Of a DNA stretch of 64,000 nt, positions 55,831 to 60,769 are shown in pieces. The translations under genes and the position numbers were made by a program. Position 1 is the first letter of the stretch. Every line of letters begins with the position of its first letter. The stretch covers positions 248,001 through 312,000 of the forward strand of contig NZ_JACYFG010000038.1 in NCBI RefSeq assembly GCF_014803405.1, given 5' to 3'. The notes below the pieces were generated by a model that did no database searches, was not told where the DNA came from, and worked only from the letters and a program-made list of their open reading frames with translations. This DNA comes from Pelagicoccus enzymogenes. GTDB taxonomy: Bacteria > Verrucomicrobiota > Verrucomicrobiia > Opitutales > Opitutaceae.

Positions 55831-55867
55831 AAAACACCCATCTCGAATGAGTTGGGTGTTTTTTTGT
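55831..55867 (+). terminator. Terminator of the ATP synthase operon
   Basis: AAAACACCCA / TGGGTGTTTT hairpin with a CTC-GAAT-GAG inner stem, followed by seven T, about 25 bp after the atpC stop. Confidence 0.93.
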
Positions 55868-55978: not shown

Positions 55979-56007
55979 TTGACTGTTCTCAATTGTAGAA
56001 TAATTAT
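55979..56007 (+). promoter_or_regulatory. Possible sigma-70 promoter for the PspA-flotillin operon
   Basis: TTGACT and AATTAT separated by 17 bp, in AT-rich DNA about 100 bp before the first gene of the four-gene cluster. The -35 box is good and the -10 box is moderate; no sigma-54 motif (TGGCAC-N5-TTGC) was found in the interval. Confidence 0.4.
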
Positions 56008-56105
56008 ACGTAACCTCGGATTCTTATTCCGGGTATCCTCTCTTGTTAGTGGGTTCGCGAATCGCGTGAACCGTCGATTTTGCCTTAGCCCAGACCCCAA
56101 ACCCA

Positions 56106-56612
56106 GTGAACGACAACAAAGCGACTGTTCCGATCAGCGGACGCGTTTCTGAAGACGACTACAACTTCTTGATGGAGTACCCAGTCGAAGGAAAAGTAAC
56201 CGCGAGCGAAAAGTTGCGTTACGTGATGTCGTTCTTTCGAAGCTACCATGAAAGCTTGAACGATTACTCCGACTGTTTGGCGGAGTTGAACCGGTTGCTC
56301 GAGCCTTCCCGCAAAGACATCAAAAAGGCTGAGTTGGAGGCAGAGGTGTCTTCAGAATTGTTAGACCGACTGTTACAAGTTTTACCTGAGATGCTTGCTC
56401 TGTGCATTACTGCGAATGTACCCAAAAAGTCTGACAAGAAGCTACCAGCTCTGCTCGCCTTGGAAGAACGCCAACTGAAGTTGGCGATGGGGCTTATCGA
56501 AAGCGTTCTCCGAATGGGGCTTACACAAAAGTCTCCCACTTATAACCCAACTGTCCTCAGGGACAAGATGAAGACGATCAGCGAATTGGTTGAGCTGAGC
56601 CGTCAGACATAA
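56106..56612 (+). CDS. RHH-like protein heading the PspA-flotillin operon
   Basis: 168 residues, starting with a GTG. The first 55 residues (VPISGRVSEDDYNFLMEYPV, GKVTASEKLRYVMSFFRSYHE) look like a ribbon-helix-helix fold: a short strand, helix A, a polar turn and helix B, with the R.SEDDY pattern of CopG/Arc-type proteins. The remainder is helical and charged, with LLDRLLQVLPEMLAL and ERQLKLAMGLIESVLRMG segments that could dimerise or bind a coiled-coil partner. It lies 23 bp before pspA. A regulator or PspA-binding partner is the natural guess from position; no family is named with confidence. Confidence 0.7.
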   Translation: MNDNKATVPISGRVSEDDYNFLMEYPVEGKVTASEKLRYVMSFFRSYHESLNDYSDCLAELNRLLEPSRKDIKKAELEAEVSSELLDRLLQVLPEMLALCITANVPKKSDKKLPALLALEERQLKLAMGLIESVLRMGLTQKSPTYNPTVLRDKMKTISELVELSRQT

Positions 56613-56635
56613 CAACAGCCTTAACCCGCATAATT

Positions 56636-57337
56636 ATGAATGATAGCATCTCCACACGTATTGGACGAATCATTACTGGAACCGCATATTCTATAGTCTC
56701 CAAAATTGAGGGCCTTGCTCCAGAGGCGGTACTAGAGCAGGCGATTTCTGAAGTAGATCAAGTCTTGGATGAAGTGCGAGCAGCTCTAGGAGGAATCACG
56801 GCTCAAAAGCATCACGTATCCAAAACGATGGCACGCCTTAATCATGAACATGCCGAGTTAGAAGACCAAGTCGTTGTGGCATACACGCAGGGGCGGAAGG
56901 ACTTAGTAGAATCTGCTTTAGCCCGTCAAACTGATATCGAGGATCAGCTCCCTGCCTTGGAAGCTCAGCTCGGACGCTTGTCTCGCCAAGAGGCTGACCA
57001 CAATCAAGCATTGACCGGTTTGATTGCCAAGCGAAACGAAATGGAAGATGAACTTCAGGAGTTCATTCGTAGCCGCAAGCAGGAGGTTGTTGTCACGGAT
57101 TCCGATGTTGAAGATTTCGCGAGTCCAGATTCAGCGCTTTGGAAAGCGGAAAAGGCGGAAAGCGCGTTTTCCCGCGTGATGCAGCGTACTACTGGAATAA
57201 ATCGTAGCTCGCTCACTACGAACAGCCGGGAGAGCGCCAAGCTGGTCGAGTTGGCGAACTTGAGCCGCAACGCCAAGATCGAAGCCAAACTGAAGGCTTT
57301 GGAAGAGAGGATAGAAAGGGAATCCGCCCATGATTGA
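56636..57337 (+). CDS. PspA/IM30 (Vipp1) family protein
   Basis: 233 residues dominated by a long helical hairpin: RIGRIITGTAYSIVSKIEG (amphipathic N-terminal helix), LEQAISEVDQVLDEVRAALG, LEDQVVVAYTQGRKDLVESALARQ, and LARQTDIEDQLPALEAQLGRL. PspA/IM30 proteins form ESCRT-III-like oligomers on the inner membrane and stabilise it under stress. The helical layout and lengths fit the family. Its stop overlaps the next gene's start by 8 bp, so translation is coupled. Confidence 0.9.
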   Translation: MNDSISTRIGRIITGTAYSIVSKIEGLAPEAVLEQAISEVDQVLDEVRAALGGITAQKHHVSKTMARLNHEHAELEDQVVVAYTQGRKDLVESALARQTDIEDQLPALEAQLGRLSRQEADHNQALTGLIAKRNEMEDELQEFIRSRKQEVVVTDSDVEDFASPDSALWKAEKAESAFSRVMQRTTGINRSSLTTNSRESAKLVELANLSRNAKIEAKLKALEERIERESAHD

Positions 57338-58004
57338 AAACCTACTTGCTCCAGAAAACGGAGTGTTTCTGGTTTCCCTTTGCTTGTTCCTCCTGATCTT
57401 CGTGATTCAGGCGGTCAGCGTGGTCGTCGGTATGGAGCCTTTCGGTTTCCTGGACAGCTTGTTGCCGGACGTCGACATCGATCTGGATTCTGATCTTAAC
57501 CTAGCGGATACGACGCCTGGCTTCATCGACAGCGTAATGTCCATGCTGAAGCTGGGCCGCGTACCTTTTGTATTCACTTTTATACTTTTTCTTTTCCTGT
57601 TCTCGGTCGTTGGCCTCTATGGTCAGATGGCTTTGTTCGAGCTGAGTGGATCTCGCTTACACTGGTTCCTAGCTTCGGGAGGAGCCTTTGTAGTTACGCT
57701 TCCACTACTACGATTTGGAAACGGGATTCTCGAAAAAGTACTCCCCAAGGATGAAACGGCTGCCATTTCGGCGAGCACCTTCATTGGCAGGATGGCTACC
57801 ATCGTAATCGGTTCCGCCACGCATGAGCGGGCAGCTGAGGCGAAGGTGGTCGGACCTGACGGGAAAACGCATTACGTCAACGTTGTCGCAGACAACGAGG
57901 GCAAAGTCTTCACGCAAGGTGACCACCTGCTCATCGTAGGCCGCCGGACGGAGGGCATCTTTACAGTTATCGAAAACAAAAACCCACTCTTGGAAGAACA
58001 ATAA
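57330..58004 (+). CDS. YqiJ/OB-fold (NfeD-like) membrane protein
   Basis: 224 residues. Membrane helices near 12-35, 73-96 and 103-125 flank a short acidic loop (DSLLPDVDIDLDSDLN), and the C-terminal 80 residues form an OB-fold domain (AKVVGPDGKTHYVNVVADN, then GDHLLIVGRRTEGIFTVIEN). This is the YqiJ/YuaF arrangement that accompanies flotillins; the OB domain is thought to dock onto the SPFH protein. It lies between pspA (8-bp overlap) and the flotillin (7-bp gap). Confidence 0.88.
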   Translation: MIENLLAPENGVFLVSLCLFLLIFVIQAVSVVVGMEPFGFLDSLLPDVDIDLDSDLNLADTTPGFIDSVMSMLKLGRVPFVFTFILFLFLFSVVGLYGQMALFELSGSRLHWFLASGGAFVVTLPLLRFGNGILEKVLPKDETAAISASTFIGRMATIVIGSATHERAAEAKVVGPDGKTHYVNVVADNEGKVFTQGDHLLIVGRRTEGIFTVIENKNPLLEEQ

Positions 58005-58010
58005 AAAACT

Positions 58011-59735
58011 ATGTTTGATCTATCATCACTAGCCGGAGTCGTCGGCTTGGGCGTCATCCTCGTCCTCACCATCCTTTTCATCCTGTCGCGCTTCTATCGA
58101 CGGGCCAGCAAGGAGGTTGCGTTTGTCCGTACCGGTATGGGCGGCGAAAAAGTTATCTTGGACGGAGGCGGCCTAAAGTGGCCGGTTTTCCACGAAATCA
58201 TCCTCGTGAACATGCGCACCCTGCGCTTGCAGGTGGATCGCAAGAATGAAGAAGGATTGATTACGGCAGACCGGATGCGCGTCGATGTGACGGCTGAGTT
58301 TTATCTTCGGGTGAAGCCTGAGAAGGAATCCATCGCCAAGGCTGCCCAGACTTTGGGTGAACGGACATTGGAACCCGAACGCTTGAAGGAGCTGCTCCAG
58401 GGTAAGTTCGTCGATGCGCTGCGCTCTGTTGCAGCGGGTTTATCCATGGAACAACTACACGAGCAACGCGCGGAGTTTATCCAGTCCGTGCAAGTGTCGC
58501 TCAGCGAGGACCTGCTGAAGAATGGTTTAGAGCTCGAGTCTGTTTCCTTGACCGCTCTCGACCAAACCGGCCGCGAGTATTTCAAGGAAGACAATGCCTT
58601 CGACGCTCAAGGTCTCGCCAAGCTTACTTTGATCACCGAATCGAAGCGTGAAGAGCGGAATCGCATCGAGCAAGAAACACGTATCAAGATCGAGAACCAA
58701 AACTTGGACGCTGCGAAACAGAGCTTCGAGATCAAGCGGGCAGAGGAGTTCGCTCGCCTCGACCAGCAGCGCGAAGTCGAGATGGCCACAGCTCAGCAAT
58801 CGGCTCGTATCAAGACGGAGGATGCCATTCGCAAGCGGGAAGCGGAAGAAGCCCGTATCTCCGCGGAGCAGGCTGTGAAAGAAGCGGACATCCTCTCTCG
58901 CCAGGCGGTAGACGAAAGAGACATCGAAGCAAAGCGTCGTATCGAAGAAGCGGATATCCAGCGTCGCCGCTCCGTAGACGTAAGCGGGCAGGAAGCCGCG
59001 ATCATCGTGGCGAAGAAGTCTGAAGAAAAGTCCCAGGCGGAAGCGGAAGCGGCCAAAGCGCGTTCGAATTTCGTGAGGGAAGAAGAGCAAGTCGTCACTG
59101 TTCGCGAAACTGCGATCGCCAATCGTAAGAAGGAGATCGAGCTGATCAAGGCGCGTGAGGACGCGGAGAAGCAAGCGATCGATGTTACGGTTGCCGCTGA
59201 AGCGGACAAGCAAGCGGCGCTCGACAAAGCGGAGGCGGTGCTCACCGAATCCAAGGCAGCGGCTGAGAAGATTCGCATCATCGCGGAAGCGGACCAGAAG
59301 CGATTCGAGGTCGAGGCTTACGGCGAGAAGGCGATCAACGAAGCCAAGAATATCCTCAGTTCCGAGCTCATCGGCTTCGAATTGCGCAAGATCTTGGCTC
59401 AAGTGGCCCCGAAAATCATGGAAGCCAGCGTAAAGCCAATGGAGAAGATCGACAGCATCAAGATCCTGCAGGCGAATGGCTTTGGCGGTACGACTGGAGG
59501 GGCAAACGGAAGCAACGGTACGTCAAACGCGGGGGGCGGCAGCTTGCCGAACCAGCTCGTGGATGCGGCTCTTGGCTACCGCATGAACCTGCCGCTGGTC
59601 GACAAGATGTTGGAAGAGCTCGGACTGGATCCGAAGTCAGCAGAAGGTCTCAGTGCCTTGCTTAAGGAGAAAGGCGACCTGAAAATCGACACCGAGACGG
59701 AGGAGAAAACGGTTAAAGCCAAAAGCAAATCCTAG
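58011..59735 (+). CDS. Flotillin (YqiK-type SPFH protein)
   Basis: 574 residues. An N-terminal membrane helix (GVVGLGVILVLTILFILSRF), the SPFH domain (EVAFVRTGMGGEKVILDGGG, ITADRMRVDVTAEFYLRV, SLTALDQTGREYF), a long charged coiled coil rich in EAE and AEA repeats from about 215 to 440 (the flotillin domain), then a Gly/Asn/Ser-rich linker (TTGGANGSNGTSNAGGG) and a short C-terminal segment. Flotillins organise membrane microdomains. Paired with the OB-fold protein and PspA here, it points to a membrane-integrity complex. Confidence 0.93.
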   Translation: MFDLSSLAGVVGLGVILVLTILFILSRFYRRASKEVAFVRTGMGGEKVILDGGGLKWPVFHEIILVNMRTLRLQVDRKNEEGLITADRMRVDVTAEFYLRVKPEKESIAKAAQTLGERTLEPERLKELLQGKFVDALRSVAAGLSMEQLHEQRAEFIQSVQVSLSEDLLKNGLELESVSLTALDQTGREYFKEDNAFDAQGLAKLTLITESKREERNRIEQETRIKIENQNLDAAKQSFEIKRAEEFARLDQQREVEMATAQQSARIKTEDAIRKREAEEARISAEQAVKEADILSRQAVDERDIEAKRRIEEADIQRRRSVDVSGQEAAIIVAKKSEEKSQAEAEAAKARSNFVREEEQVVTVRETAIANRKKEIELIKAREDAEKQAIDVTVAAEADKQAALDKAEAVLTESKAAAEKIRIIAEADQKRFEVEAYGEKAINEAKNILSSELIGFELRKILAQVAPKIMEASVKPMEKIDSIKILQANGFGGTTGGANGSNGTSNAGGGSLPNQLVDAALGYRMNLPLVDKMLEELGLDPKSAEGLSALLKEKGDLKIDTETEEKTVKAKSKS

Positions 59736-59761: not shown

Positions 59762-59789
59762 GGGCGAAGGGTAACCTTCGCCCTCTTCT
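59762..59789 (+). terminator. Probable terminator of the flotillin operon
   Basis: A 9-bp stem GGGCGAAGG / CCTTCGCCC with a GTAA loop, followed by a pyrimidine-rich, T-interrupted tract. It lies 26 bp after the flotillin stop. Confidence 0.7.
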
Positions 59790-59824: not shown

Positions 59825-60769
59825 ATGAAAAAAAGATCACTCTCGAATTTCGTTATCCTTCTTGCTTCGATCATTTTGGCGACGGGCCTCTATGGGAAGA
59901 AGCACAAGGGAATCGAGTTACCCAAGTCTATCGGCTCGTTCCTGTATCAGGACTTTCACGACTACGAGAAGGAGAATCCCGGATTGGGGAGGGGTTTCGC
60001 TTACCACACTTCGGACGGAGTTACTGCGACGATTTACGTGTACGACCTGAATCGCAGGGACATCGAAAATGGGGCAGATGGAGTTGTCGTAGTCGAGTCG
60101 GCCCGTTTGACGGCTCGCGAGATAGAGATGATGGCCAAACAGCAAGGCTATGCGGAGCTAAGCGTTTCGAACTTTCGCAAGGTGTCGGTTGGGGCAGTCA
60201 AGATGTGGTTTTCGAGGATTTCGTTCCAGGAAGAGAATGGGGTAGAGAGAAATTCCTTGGCATTGCTAACTGGATACAAATCTCAAATTTTTAAGGTTCG
60301 CATCACAGGGGGTAGTGATGCGGAACGCTTCGATGCGGTGGTGGAATTCTTCCTAAAGGACTTGGGGAACAAGGTTCTTAAAGGGGGAAAGAAAAAGAAG
60401 CGGGACATTGTTCTAAGCTCGGAAATCATGAACAGCGCGAATGGGGCGTTGCATGTGGTCTATACGGCGATCAAGCAAACCTTGGGCGATCCATATTCGT
60501 TTGAGACGGAACGGGCCGCGATGGAATTGGTAGCTCTTGCCTTGGAAAAGGAAGGCAACGAGAAGGACGAGACTTTCAATCGGGACGACAAGAGCTTGAT
60601 GGAGTTTCACAAGGCCTTCCGAGCAGGATTCTTGAACGAGTACGTTTGGTTCTTTGCTCGGAATTATGTGTGGGAGAGGCCGGAGGGCTTGCGGCTTAAA
60701 GCATTCCAGCAGTGGATTTCAGAGGAGATGCCGGACCATGAGCTGCCCTTGGTTTTCTCGGTCGGATGA
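59825..60769 (+). CDS. Secreted or periplasmic hypothetical protein
   Basis: 314 residues from the ATG at 59825; the in-frame start at 59789 adds 12 residues that spoil the signal peptide. The N-terminus MKKRSLSNFVILLASIILATGLYG is a clear signal sequence. The mature part has an alpha/beta region (ATIYVYDLNRRDIENG, VKMWFSRISFQEE, FDAVVEFFLKDL) and then a basic KGGKKKKRD stretch before a helical C-terminus. No family is recognised. It lies behind the flotillin operon terminator and is probably separate from it. Confidence 0.65.
   Translation: MKKRSLSNFVILLASIILATGLYGKKHKGIELPKSIGSFLYQDFHDYEKENPGLGRGFAYHTSDGVTATIYVYDLNRRDIENGADGVVVVESARLTAREIEMMAKQQGYAELSVSNFRKVSVGAVKMWFSRISFQEENGVERNSLALLTGYKSQIFKVRITGGSDAERFDAVVEFFLKDLGNKVLKGGKKKKRDIVLSSEIMNSANGALHVVYTAIKQTLGDPYSFETERAAMELVALALEKEGNEKDETFNRDDKSLMEFHKAFRAGFLNEYVWFFARNYVWERPEGLRLKAFQQWISEEMPDHELPLVFSVG

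What the first reader, a model, noticed from the sequence alone, without database searches (positions are those of the whole stretch)
56106..59735. Four-gene envelope module: RHH-like protein, PspA, YqiJ-like OB-fold protein and flotillin
Four genes sit on one strand with gaps or overlaps of 23 bp or less, so they should be made together. PspA-family, NfeD/YqiJ-like and flotillin proteins are each known in membrane maintenance, but the first gene is an unassigned protein with an N-terminal ribbon-helix-helix-like half and a helical C-terminal half. It could be a DNA-binding switch whose helical part is titrated by PspA, replacing the usual PspF logic; no sigma-54 promoter motif is seen. The co-occurrence and overlaps are visible; the regulatory loop is inferred.
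Basis: partly seen in the sequence, partly recalled or inferred. Interest (0 to 1): 0.62.

Follow-up and report, generated by a model that had tools for sequence, protein, structure and literature searches.

The report
PspA–flotillin operon with own putative switch
A four-gene bacterial membrane-protection operon begins with a previously unnamed protein that looks like a small DNA-binding switch, and a mirror-image DNA site lies on the operon's own promoter, suggesting that the operon regulates itself without the classical control system.

Summary
The four-gene operon is real: gene 1 (168 aa, no Pfam family), PspA, YqiJ, flotillin, in a Pelagicoccus-like genome (Opitutales). Gene 1 is tied to this PspA type: of 17 genomes with it among 372 of the order, 15 have a recognisable gene 1 upstream and two a divergent homologue there. 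The same cassette sits on a Vitreoscilla plasmid (Betaproteobacteria). [quoted passage not shown] Pfam and Foldseek find nothing, and some comparisons failed. New here: an inverted repeat, GTATAA-N3-TTATAC, overlaps the promoter's -10 in the window and recurs upstream of gene 1 in 14 of 16 Opitutales loci. In the window's genome the near-exact pattern occurs only at this promoter. It is absent from the four gene-1 loci whose strand motif differs and from two yqiJ-flotillin operons without gene 1. Best reading: gene 1 is a dedicated RHH-type autoregulator, probably a repressor, with a helical sensing half. Titration by PspA is plausible but untested. Related operons with a CesT/Tir protein in first place are published, so this is a new variant of a known kind.

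The parts
55833..55865 (+). terminator-like inverted repeat plus T run after atpC, separating the operon from the atp genes
   Evidence: read by eye; position; not found by the scan because its loop exceeds 8 bases
55979..56007 (+). promoter-like pair TTGACT-17-AATTAT
   Evidence: 9 of 12 matches; promoter-like pairs as such at chance frequency, 2 found, 2.1 expected; the TTGACT is kept in L025, L026 and L033
55993..56011 (+). candidate operator, TTGTAGAATAATTATACGT (core GTATAA-N3-TTATAC with one mismatch in the left arm)
   Evidence: 14 of 16 gene-1 loci of the order; single near-exact copy in the genome, no exact symmetric core
56106..56612 (+). gene 1: putative RHH-type autoregulator with a helical C-terminal half (168 aa, GTG start)
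56124..56249 (+). RHH-like N-terminal domain of gene 1, residues 7-48
56636..57337 (+). pspA (PspA/IM30 family, 233 aa)
   Evidence: PF04012 E 5.1e-14
57330..58004 (+). yqiJ (YqiJ_N and OB-fold, 224 aa)
   Evidence: PF21001 E 2.6e-25 and PF07290 E 4.1e-16
58011..59735 (+). flotillin (Band_7 and Flot, 574 aa)
   Evidence: PF01145 E 4.5e-19 and PF15975 E 4.1e-38
59762..59783 (+). terminator-like hairpin at the end of the operon

Best explanation
The four genes form one envelope-maintenance operon controlled by its own first gene. Gene 1 dimerises through an N-terminal ribbon-helix-helix and binds the inverted repeat that overlaps the -10 of the operon's promoter, holding down synthesis of itself, PspA, YqiJ and flotillin. 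Its helical C-terminal half is the input: membrane stress, sensed most likely through a partner encoded in the same operon (PspA is the first candidate), releases it from DNA. Shown by sequence: the operon, the gene 1-pspA linkage, the conserved site and its single near-exact copy in the genome. Supported but not proven: the RHH fold. Inferred: DNA binding by gene 1, the negative sign of control, the signal and the partner.
For: Linkage: 15 of the 17 genomes with this PspA (of 372) have a gene-1 hit and the other two a divergent homologue upstream of pspA; same cassette on a Betaproteobacteria plasmid. RHH: 38-column ungapped profile alignment E 0.0019, 0 of 400 permutations; with the diverse alignment 40 columns, E 2.1e-4, 0 of 500 permutations; predicted extended strand, helix 16-23, helix 33-52; TraM and MazE-mt1 rank first in VIA-align. 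Operator: 14 of 16 loci; arms mostly complementary, one site with a paired change; single near-exact copy in the genome. The site goes with the strand motif: 14 of 15 loci with [IL]SGR against 0 of 4 with another motif (Fisher p 0.0013, post hoc, relatedness not corrected). The site is absent before two yqiJ-flotillin operons without gene 1.
Against: No RHH family in Pfam for any of 13 members or for the two divergent ones. Foldseek finds no RHH and nothing under E 1. The first mixed hhalign and the NikR-like subset failed, as did the two divergent members alone. VIA Z of about 4 can be chance (note). The full-length model is poor (pLDDT 65.5). The consensus used to score the 11 first sites was drawn from those sites; two of five held-out loci lack it, one of them (L018) with the usual strand motif. 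The window's own site has an imperfect left arm. No binding data.
Confidence: 0.58

Rival explanations
1. Gene 1 is not a DNA-binding switch but a helical adaptor or chaperone for PspA, filling the place that CesT/Tir-like proteins hold in other PspA operons. The RHH-like N-terminus would only be a dimerisation module, and the palindrome would be read by another regulator.
For: CesT/Tir-PspA pairs with YqiJ and flotillin are published (PMC11237479 section 19). BacA of Pseudomonas, first in its pspA-containing operon and CesT-like in its crystal structure, lowers the other operon proteins without being an RHH protein: 6.1- to 13.5-fold accumulation in the mutant (PMC10948618, section 3.4; abstract). 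Gene 1 always pairs with pspA, the expected partner of a chaperone. The C-terminal half is most of the protein.
Against: Gene 1 does not match DUF2170 or any other Pfam family, and its model shows helices and no beta sheet (low confidence). The co-conserved promoter site and its loss with the changed strand motif need a second explanation.
Confidence: 0.25
2. Gene 1 is an RHH-type activator, or a two-way regulator responding to a small ligand bound by its helical half, with no role for PspA in its control.
For: Overlap with the -10 does not prove repression; in several loci the TTG element stands at another distance from the site, so the geometry varies. The C-terminal half has its own invariant residues (E120, E132, L135, R136, T140, P144, Y146, N147 in 13 sequences), which could form a pocket.
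Against: A site over the -10 usually means blocking of the polymerase (recalled). No invariant Cys and only one nearly invariant His (H48) are seen, so a metal site is not suggested. pspA, not flotillin, is the neighbour that always accompanies gene 1.
Confidence: 0.12
3. The inverted repeat is only the -10 region of a conserved promoter type, AT-rich and symmetric by accident.
For: TATAAT-like halves are expected at a -10; promoter-like pairs as such are at chance level here.
Against: Arm positions 3, 4, 5, 7 and 8 are complementary in 13 or 14 of 14 sites, and L013 changed both arms together. The -10 appears to fall on different arms in different loci (reading).
Confidence: 0.15

Closest known systems
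CesT/Tir-PspA-YqiJ/YuaF-flotillin operons (Ravi et al. 2024, PMC11237479; passages and section 19 read)
   Different: The PspA partner here is an RHH-like plus helical protein without a DUF2170 match; no AAA+ gene directly after flotillin. The paper names an RHH factor only as the final gene of another operon group.
PspA-band 7/FloT-NfeD operons of Acidobacteriota with HTH regulators (Popp et al. 2022, PMC9239133; passages)
   Same: PspA with flotillin-type and NfeD proteins and DNA-binding regulators encoded nearby
   Different: The regulators named in the passages seen are helix-turn-helix; 'ribbon' occurs there only for a zinc ribbon
bacABCDEF of Pseudomonas aeruginosa (PMC10948618; abstract, passages, section 3.4)
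   Same: A small protein encoded just before a PspA homologue; its loss raises the other operon proteins
   Different: BacA is DUF2170/CesT-like and the authors propose a sigma-54 site; gene 1 has neither
TraM of F plasmid (4qpo) and its homologue in 4qpq
   Same: RHH DNA-binding protein that regulates its own promoter (PMC5675868 passages); best structural alignments of gene 1 residues 7-52 (Z 4.0 and 3.6)
   Different: Conjugation factor; no sequence relation found
E. coli pspF-pspABCDE
   Same: A PspA-family operon; PspA inhibits the regulator (recalled)
   Different: No sigma-54-type site at this promoter; the candidate regulator is inside the operon

Membership tests
Ribbon-helix-helix superfamily | sequence match to an RHH family model | tested here: not met
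   Pfam: none for gene 1, 13 members or two divergent members
Ribbon-helix-helix superfamily | strand-helix-helix order in register with known RHH domains | tested here: inconclusive
   hhalign E 0.0019 and 2.1e-4 with 0 of 400 and 0 of 500 permutations, but failures, for the NikR-like subset and for the divergent pair; model helices 16-23 and 33-52; VIA Z up to 4.0
Ribbon-helix-helix superfamily | dimer through an intertwined beta ribbon | not testable with these tools
   only single chains can be predicted
Ribbon-helix-helix superfamily | binds a specific DNA site | not testable with these tools
   a candidate site exists; no binding assay
PspA/IM30 | PF04012 over gathering score | tested here: met
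   52.9 against 33.9 bits
YqiJ family | YqiJ_N and YqiJ_OB over gathering score | tested here: met
   89.3 against 23 and 59.2 against 25.4 bits
Flotillin | Band_7 and Flot over gathering score | tested here: met
   69.6 against 23.6 and 130.7 against 27 bits
CesT/Tir-PspA-YqiJ-flotillin operon | CesT/Tir or DUF2170 protein paired with PspA | tested here: inconclusive
   no DUF2170 or other family in Pfam up to E 1 or in 13 members up to E 10; no profile of the wider CesT/Tir group was compared
CesT/Tir-PspA-YqiJ-flotillin operon | PspA, YqiJ and flotillin in one operon | tested here: met
PspF/sigma-54-controlled Psp system | -24/-12 promoter before the operon | tested here: not met
   no match with up to 2 mismatches between 55604 and 60473 (consensus recalled)

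The most novel reading that the evidence does not exclude
A self-contained membrane-stress circuit carried as one cassette in two phyla. An RHH repressor made from the first gene shuts the promoter; PspA, made from the next, pulls it off DNA or gives it back according to how much PspA is engaged on damaged membrane. A one-operon titration switch would here stand in for PspF and sigma-54.
Probability: 0.27. Interest if true: 0.75.

Novelty: new variant of a known kind. Interest (0 to 1): 0.55.

Why it matters
How PspA operons are controlled outside the well-studied models is largely open. Here is a candidate regulator with a candidate operator on the same operon, tied to one PspA type in the Opitutales and present with the same neighbours on a betaproteobacterial plasmid. 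A gel shift and a reporter test would decide it. If PspA is the release signal, the negative PspA-regulator loop known from PspF (recalled) would have arisen a second time with an unrelated DNA-binding fold.

Tried and rejected
Solved-structure sequence searches gave mostly designed helical proteins and chance rows, and one unrelated row for a divergent homologue. NCBIfam and PHROGs: only chance-level rows for gene 1. Full-length model: Foldseek best E 2.0, not interpretable. N-terminal model: Foldseek best E 1.3, bHLH proteins first, no RHH among its 14 rows; the RHH chains appear only in the VIA re-alignment of 23 lower-ranked Foldseek candidates.

The first hhalign against a mixed alignment of 20 RHH domains (20 of the 30 printed; near-duplicates left out) matched the wrong part of gene 1 (E 0.063). 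I then split the set by eye into NikR-like (7) and CopG-like (12; one dropped), so the positive result comes from one of two subsets chosen after a failure. The mixed set gives E 0.00076 once the diverse N-terminal alignment is used.

I first took two genomes (G020, G376) to have this PspA without gene 1; reading the DNA upstream showed a divergent gene 1 in both. The region upstream of that gene in G020 was tested only on re-check.

BacA was considered as the family of gene 1 and rejected: it is DUF2170, which no scanned member matches. Hits in two genomes outside the order (E 0.009, inside 337-codon frames) were treated as chance and not followed. The three divergent gene-1 loci L098, L116 and L088 each have another 6-bp inverted repeat within 100 bases of gene 1, but 147 to 274 of 1000 shuffles do too: a lead only. 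A leader hairpin is in Noticed in passing. A second plasmid search, with a divergent member, found nothing.

Literature: the listings showed no paper on gene 1 or on an RHH gene first in a pspA-yqiJ-flotillin operon; only titles and abstract starts were seen for papers not cited. Supplementary tables of PMC11237479 could not be read, so it may be listed there.
Full report
What is there. Between the atp genes and a terminator-like hairpin at 59762-59783 lie four + strand genes: gene 1 (56106-56612), pspA (56636-57337), yqiJ (57330-58004) and flotillin (58011-59735), with junctions of +23, -8 and +6 bp. The last three match Pfam over cut-off; gene 1 does not match any family over cut-off.

Gene 1 goes with this PspA. 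With a five-row profile, 16 of 372 genomes of the order have it; one more, G015, came from the first search, where 5 of 38 had it. In the phylum sample 6 of 387 have it with a 13-row profile, all in the same order; with an 11-row profile that includes divergent members 8 of 387 pass, the two outside the order at E about 0.009 and probably chance. The one named-genome scan gave 10 loci; in 9 of them all four genes follow in order, and the tenth contig ends inside pspA.

Conversely, this PspA type (E up to 1e-15) is in 17 of 372 genomes of the order. Fifteen of them have a gene-1 hit, lying upstream of pspA on the same strand. The other two, G020 and G376, have a divergent protein of 162 and 183 aa upstream of pspA; these two align with the gene-1 family over 158 columns (E 1.1e-5, score 39.7; best of 200 column permutations 22.5). 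The sixteenth gene-1 genome, G070, has a gene-1 fragment beside a PspA fragment. Among 13 loci measured, the gap from gene 1 to pspA is 21-50 bp in seven, 144 and 198 bp in two, and 424-450 bp in four, which hold one further small open frame.

Flotillin is less strict. At E up to 1e-60 it was found in 12 of 177 genomes, all gene-1 genomes. But in the set of 38 relatives, 9 have a flotillin at E up to 1e-10, and two of these, G002 and G006 of the same genus, have yqiJ-flotillin with no pspA or gene 1 beside it.

Outside the phylum, plasmid pVF1 of Vitreoscilla filiformis carries a 26% identical gene 1 followed by PspA, YqiJ and flotillin, annotated as hypothetical protein, PspA/IM30 family, YqiJ family and flotillin domain-containing protein. 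It was the only one of 72,556 plasmid records with a match.

Is the N-terminus an RHH? In five sequences residues 10-13 (ISGR) and 29-38 (GKVTASEKLR) are invariant, and the layout is strand, helix, turn, helix. Against CopG-like RHH_1 domains taken from genomes of the same family, hhalign gives an ungapped 38-column alignment at E 0.0019, probability 14% (0 of 400 column permutations reach its score). With the diverse 11-row alignment it gives 40 columns at E 2.1e-4 and 45.6% probability (0 of 500 permutations; other tiles of the protein at most 2.8%). Against this, the first mixed comparison and the NikR-like subset failed, as did the two divergent members alone, and Pfam lists no RHH family for 13 members or for the divergent pair.

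AlphaFold2 on 11 sequences is weak for the whole protein (pLDDT 65.5; six helices) and better for residues 1-55 (75.7; no strand assigned, helices 16-23 and 33-52). A lone chain cannot form the ribbon. Foldseek gives nothing under E 1. VIA-align on 23 of Foldseek's chains ranks TraM (4qpo, Z 4.0), MazE-mt1 (6kyt, Z 3.9) and TraM (4qpq, Z 3.6) first, then bHLH proteins at Z 3.1 and below. TraM is described as containing an RHH motif and as regulating its own promoter (PMC5675868, passages); that MazE-mt1 is RHH is recalled. Such Z values can arise by chance. Taken together the RHH reading is likely, not certain.

The candidate operator. All 11 loci first examined (window, L025-L034) hold a 19-bp near-palindrome upstream of gene 1 at 15-17 of 19 matches to TTGTATAATAATTATACAA. 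Each exceeds the best of 300 dinucleotide shuffles of its own upstream stretch, though the consensus was drawn from these same loci. Of five held-out loci three have it (7, 0 and 2 of 1000 shuffles as good, for L013, L017 and L020) and two, L018 and L023, do not (423 and 65 of 1000): 14 of 16 in all. The loci are related, so these are not 14 independent events. The distance to the start codon varies from 16 to 123 bases, which speaks for a DNA site.

Over the 14 sites, arm positions 1 to 9 are complementary in 1, 8, 14, 13, 14, 10, 13, 13 and 6; one site (L013) has changed both arms together, GCATAA/TTATGC. The window's left arm has one mismatch in the core. The site overlaps the -10 of the promoter-like pair TTGACT-17-AATTAT (the promoter match alone is at chance frequency). 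In the window's genome the 17-base pattern at up to one mismatch occurs once, here, and the exact symmetric core occurs nowhere.

Across gene-1 loci the site goes with the strand motif. Of 15 loci with [IL]SGR, 14 have it (L018 does not). None of the four with VAGR (L023), LSAR (L088), VNAR (L098) or VNTR (L116) has it. Fisher p is 0.0013, post hoc and not corrected for relatedness. It is also absent before two yqiJ-flotillin operons without gene 1. In RHH proteins the strand reads the DNA (recalled), so this is what a cognate pair would look like. Three of the divergent loci have other short inverted repeats near gene 1, not above chance one by one.

Mechanism. Most likely gene 1 autoregulates the operon, as a repressor because the site covers the -10, and is released through its helical half. 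PspA is the best candidate partner because it is the neighbour that accompanied gene 1 at each locus checked; in E. coli PspA inhibits its regulator PspF (recalled). No sigma-54-type site is at this promoter. The contact with PspA is inference. The main rival is a chaperone-like partner, as for the CesT/Tir proteins paired with PspA in related operons (PMC11237479, section 19). BacA of Pseudomonas shows that such a first gene can lower the rest of its operon without being RHH (PMC10948618, section 3.4).

Novelty. The pspA-yqiJ-flotillin core is published, and DNA-binding regulators in pspA operons have been noted (PMC9239133, passages). The RHH-like first gene, its pairing with this PspA, its operator and the cross-phylum cassette were not found in the listings; supplementary tables were not readable. 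I file it as a new variant of a known kind.

Noticed in passing
L027 9537-9944; similar open frames in the gaps of L018, L030 and L031: In four relatives a further small gene lies between gene 1 and pspA. The one tested matches TerB below cut-off (E 7.6e-4, 20.2 against 24.4 bits; frames). A five-gene variant of the cassette.
   Followed up: partly
own genome G000: C5:834293-834937, C37:235481-236158, C2:393076-393663, C37:304654-305307: The genome has four PspA-family genes; the one in this operon is the weakest match to the family model (52 bits against 148, 147 and 57). One strong match lies about 12 kb before the window on the same contig.
   Followed up: no
window 56012-56105: The leaders of the window, L025 and L026 fold into hairpins whose sequences differ; the energies are only slightly better than shuffles (z -1.65, -1.87, -1.81), and L033 shows none (z 0.47).
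   Followed up: partly
L096 and L097: Two genomes of the same genus keep yqiJ-flotillin without gene 1 or pspA beside it: the gene 1-pspA pair may behave as one removable unit.
   Followed up: partly
L098 around 6163, L116 around 2746, L088 around 6937: Each divergent gene-1 locus has a different 6-bp inverted repeat close to gene 1; not above chance one by one, but worth testing as changed operators.
   Followed up: partly
59825-60769: The next gene downstream (314 aa from an ATG) has no Pfam or NCBIfam match up to E 1.
   Followed up: no
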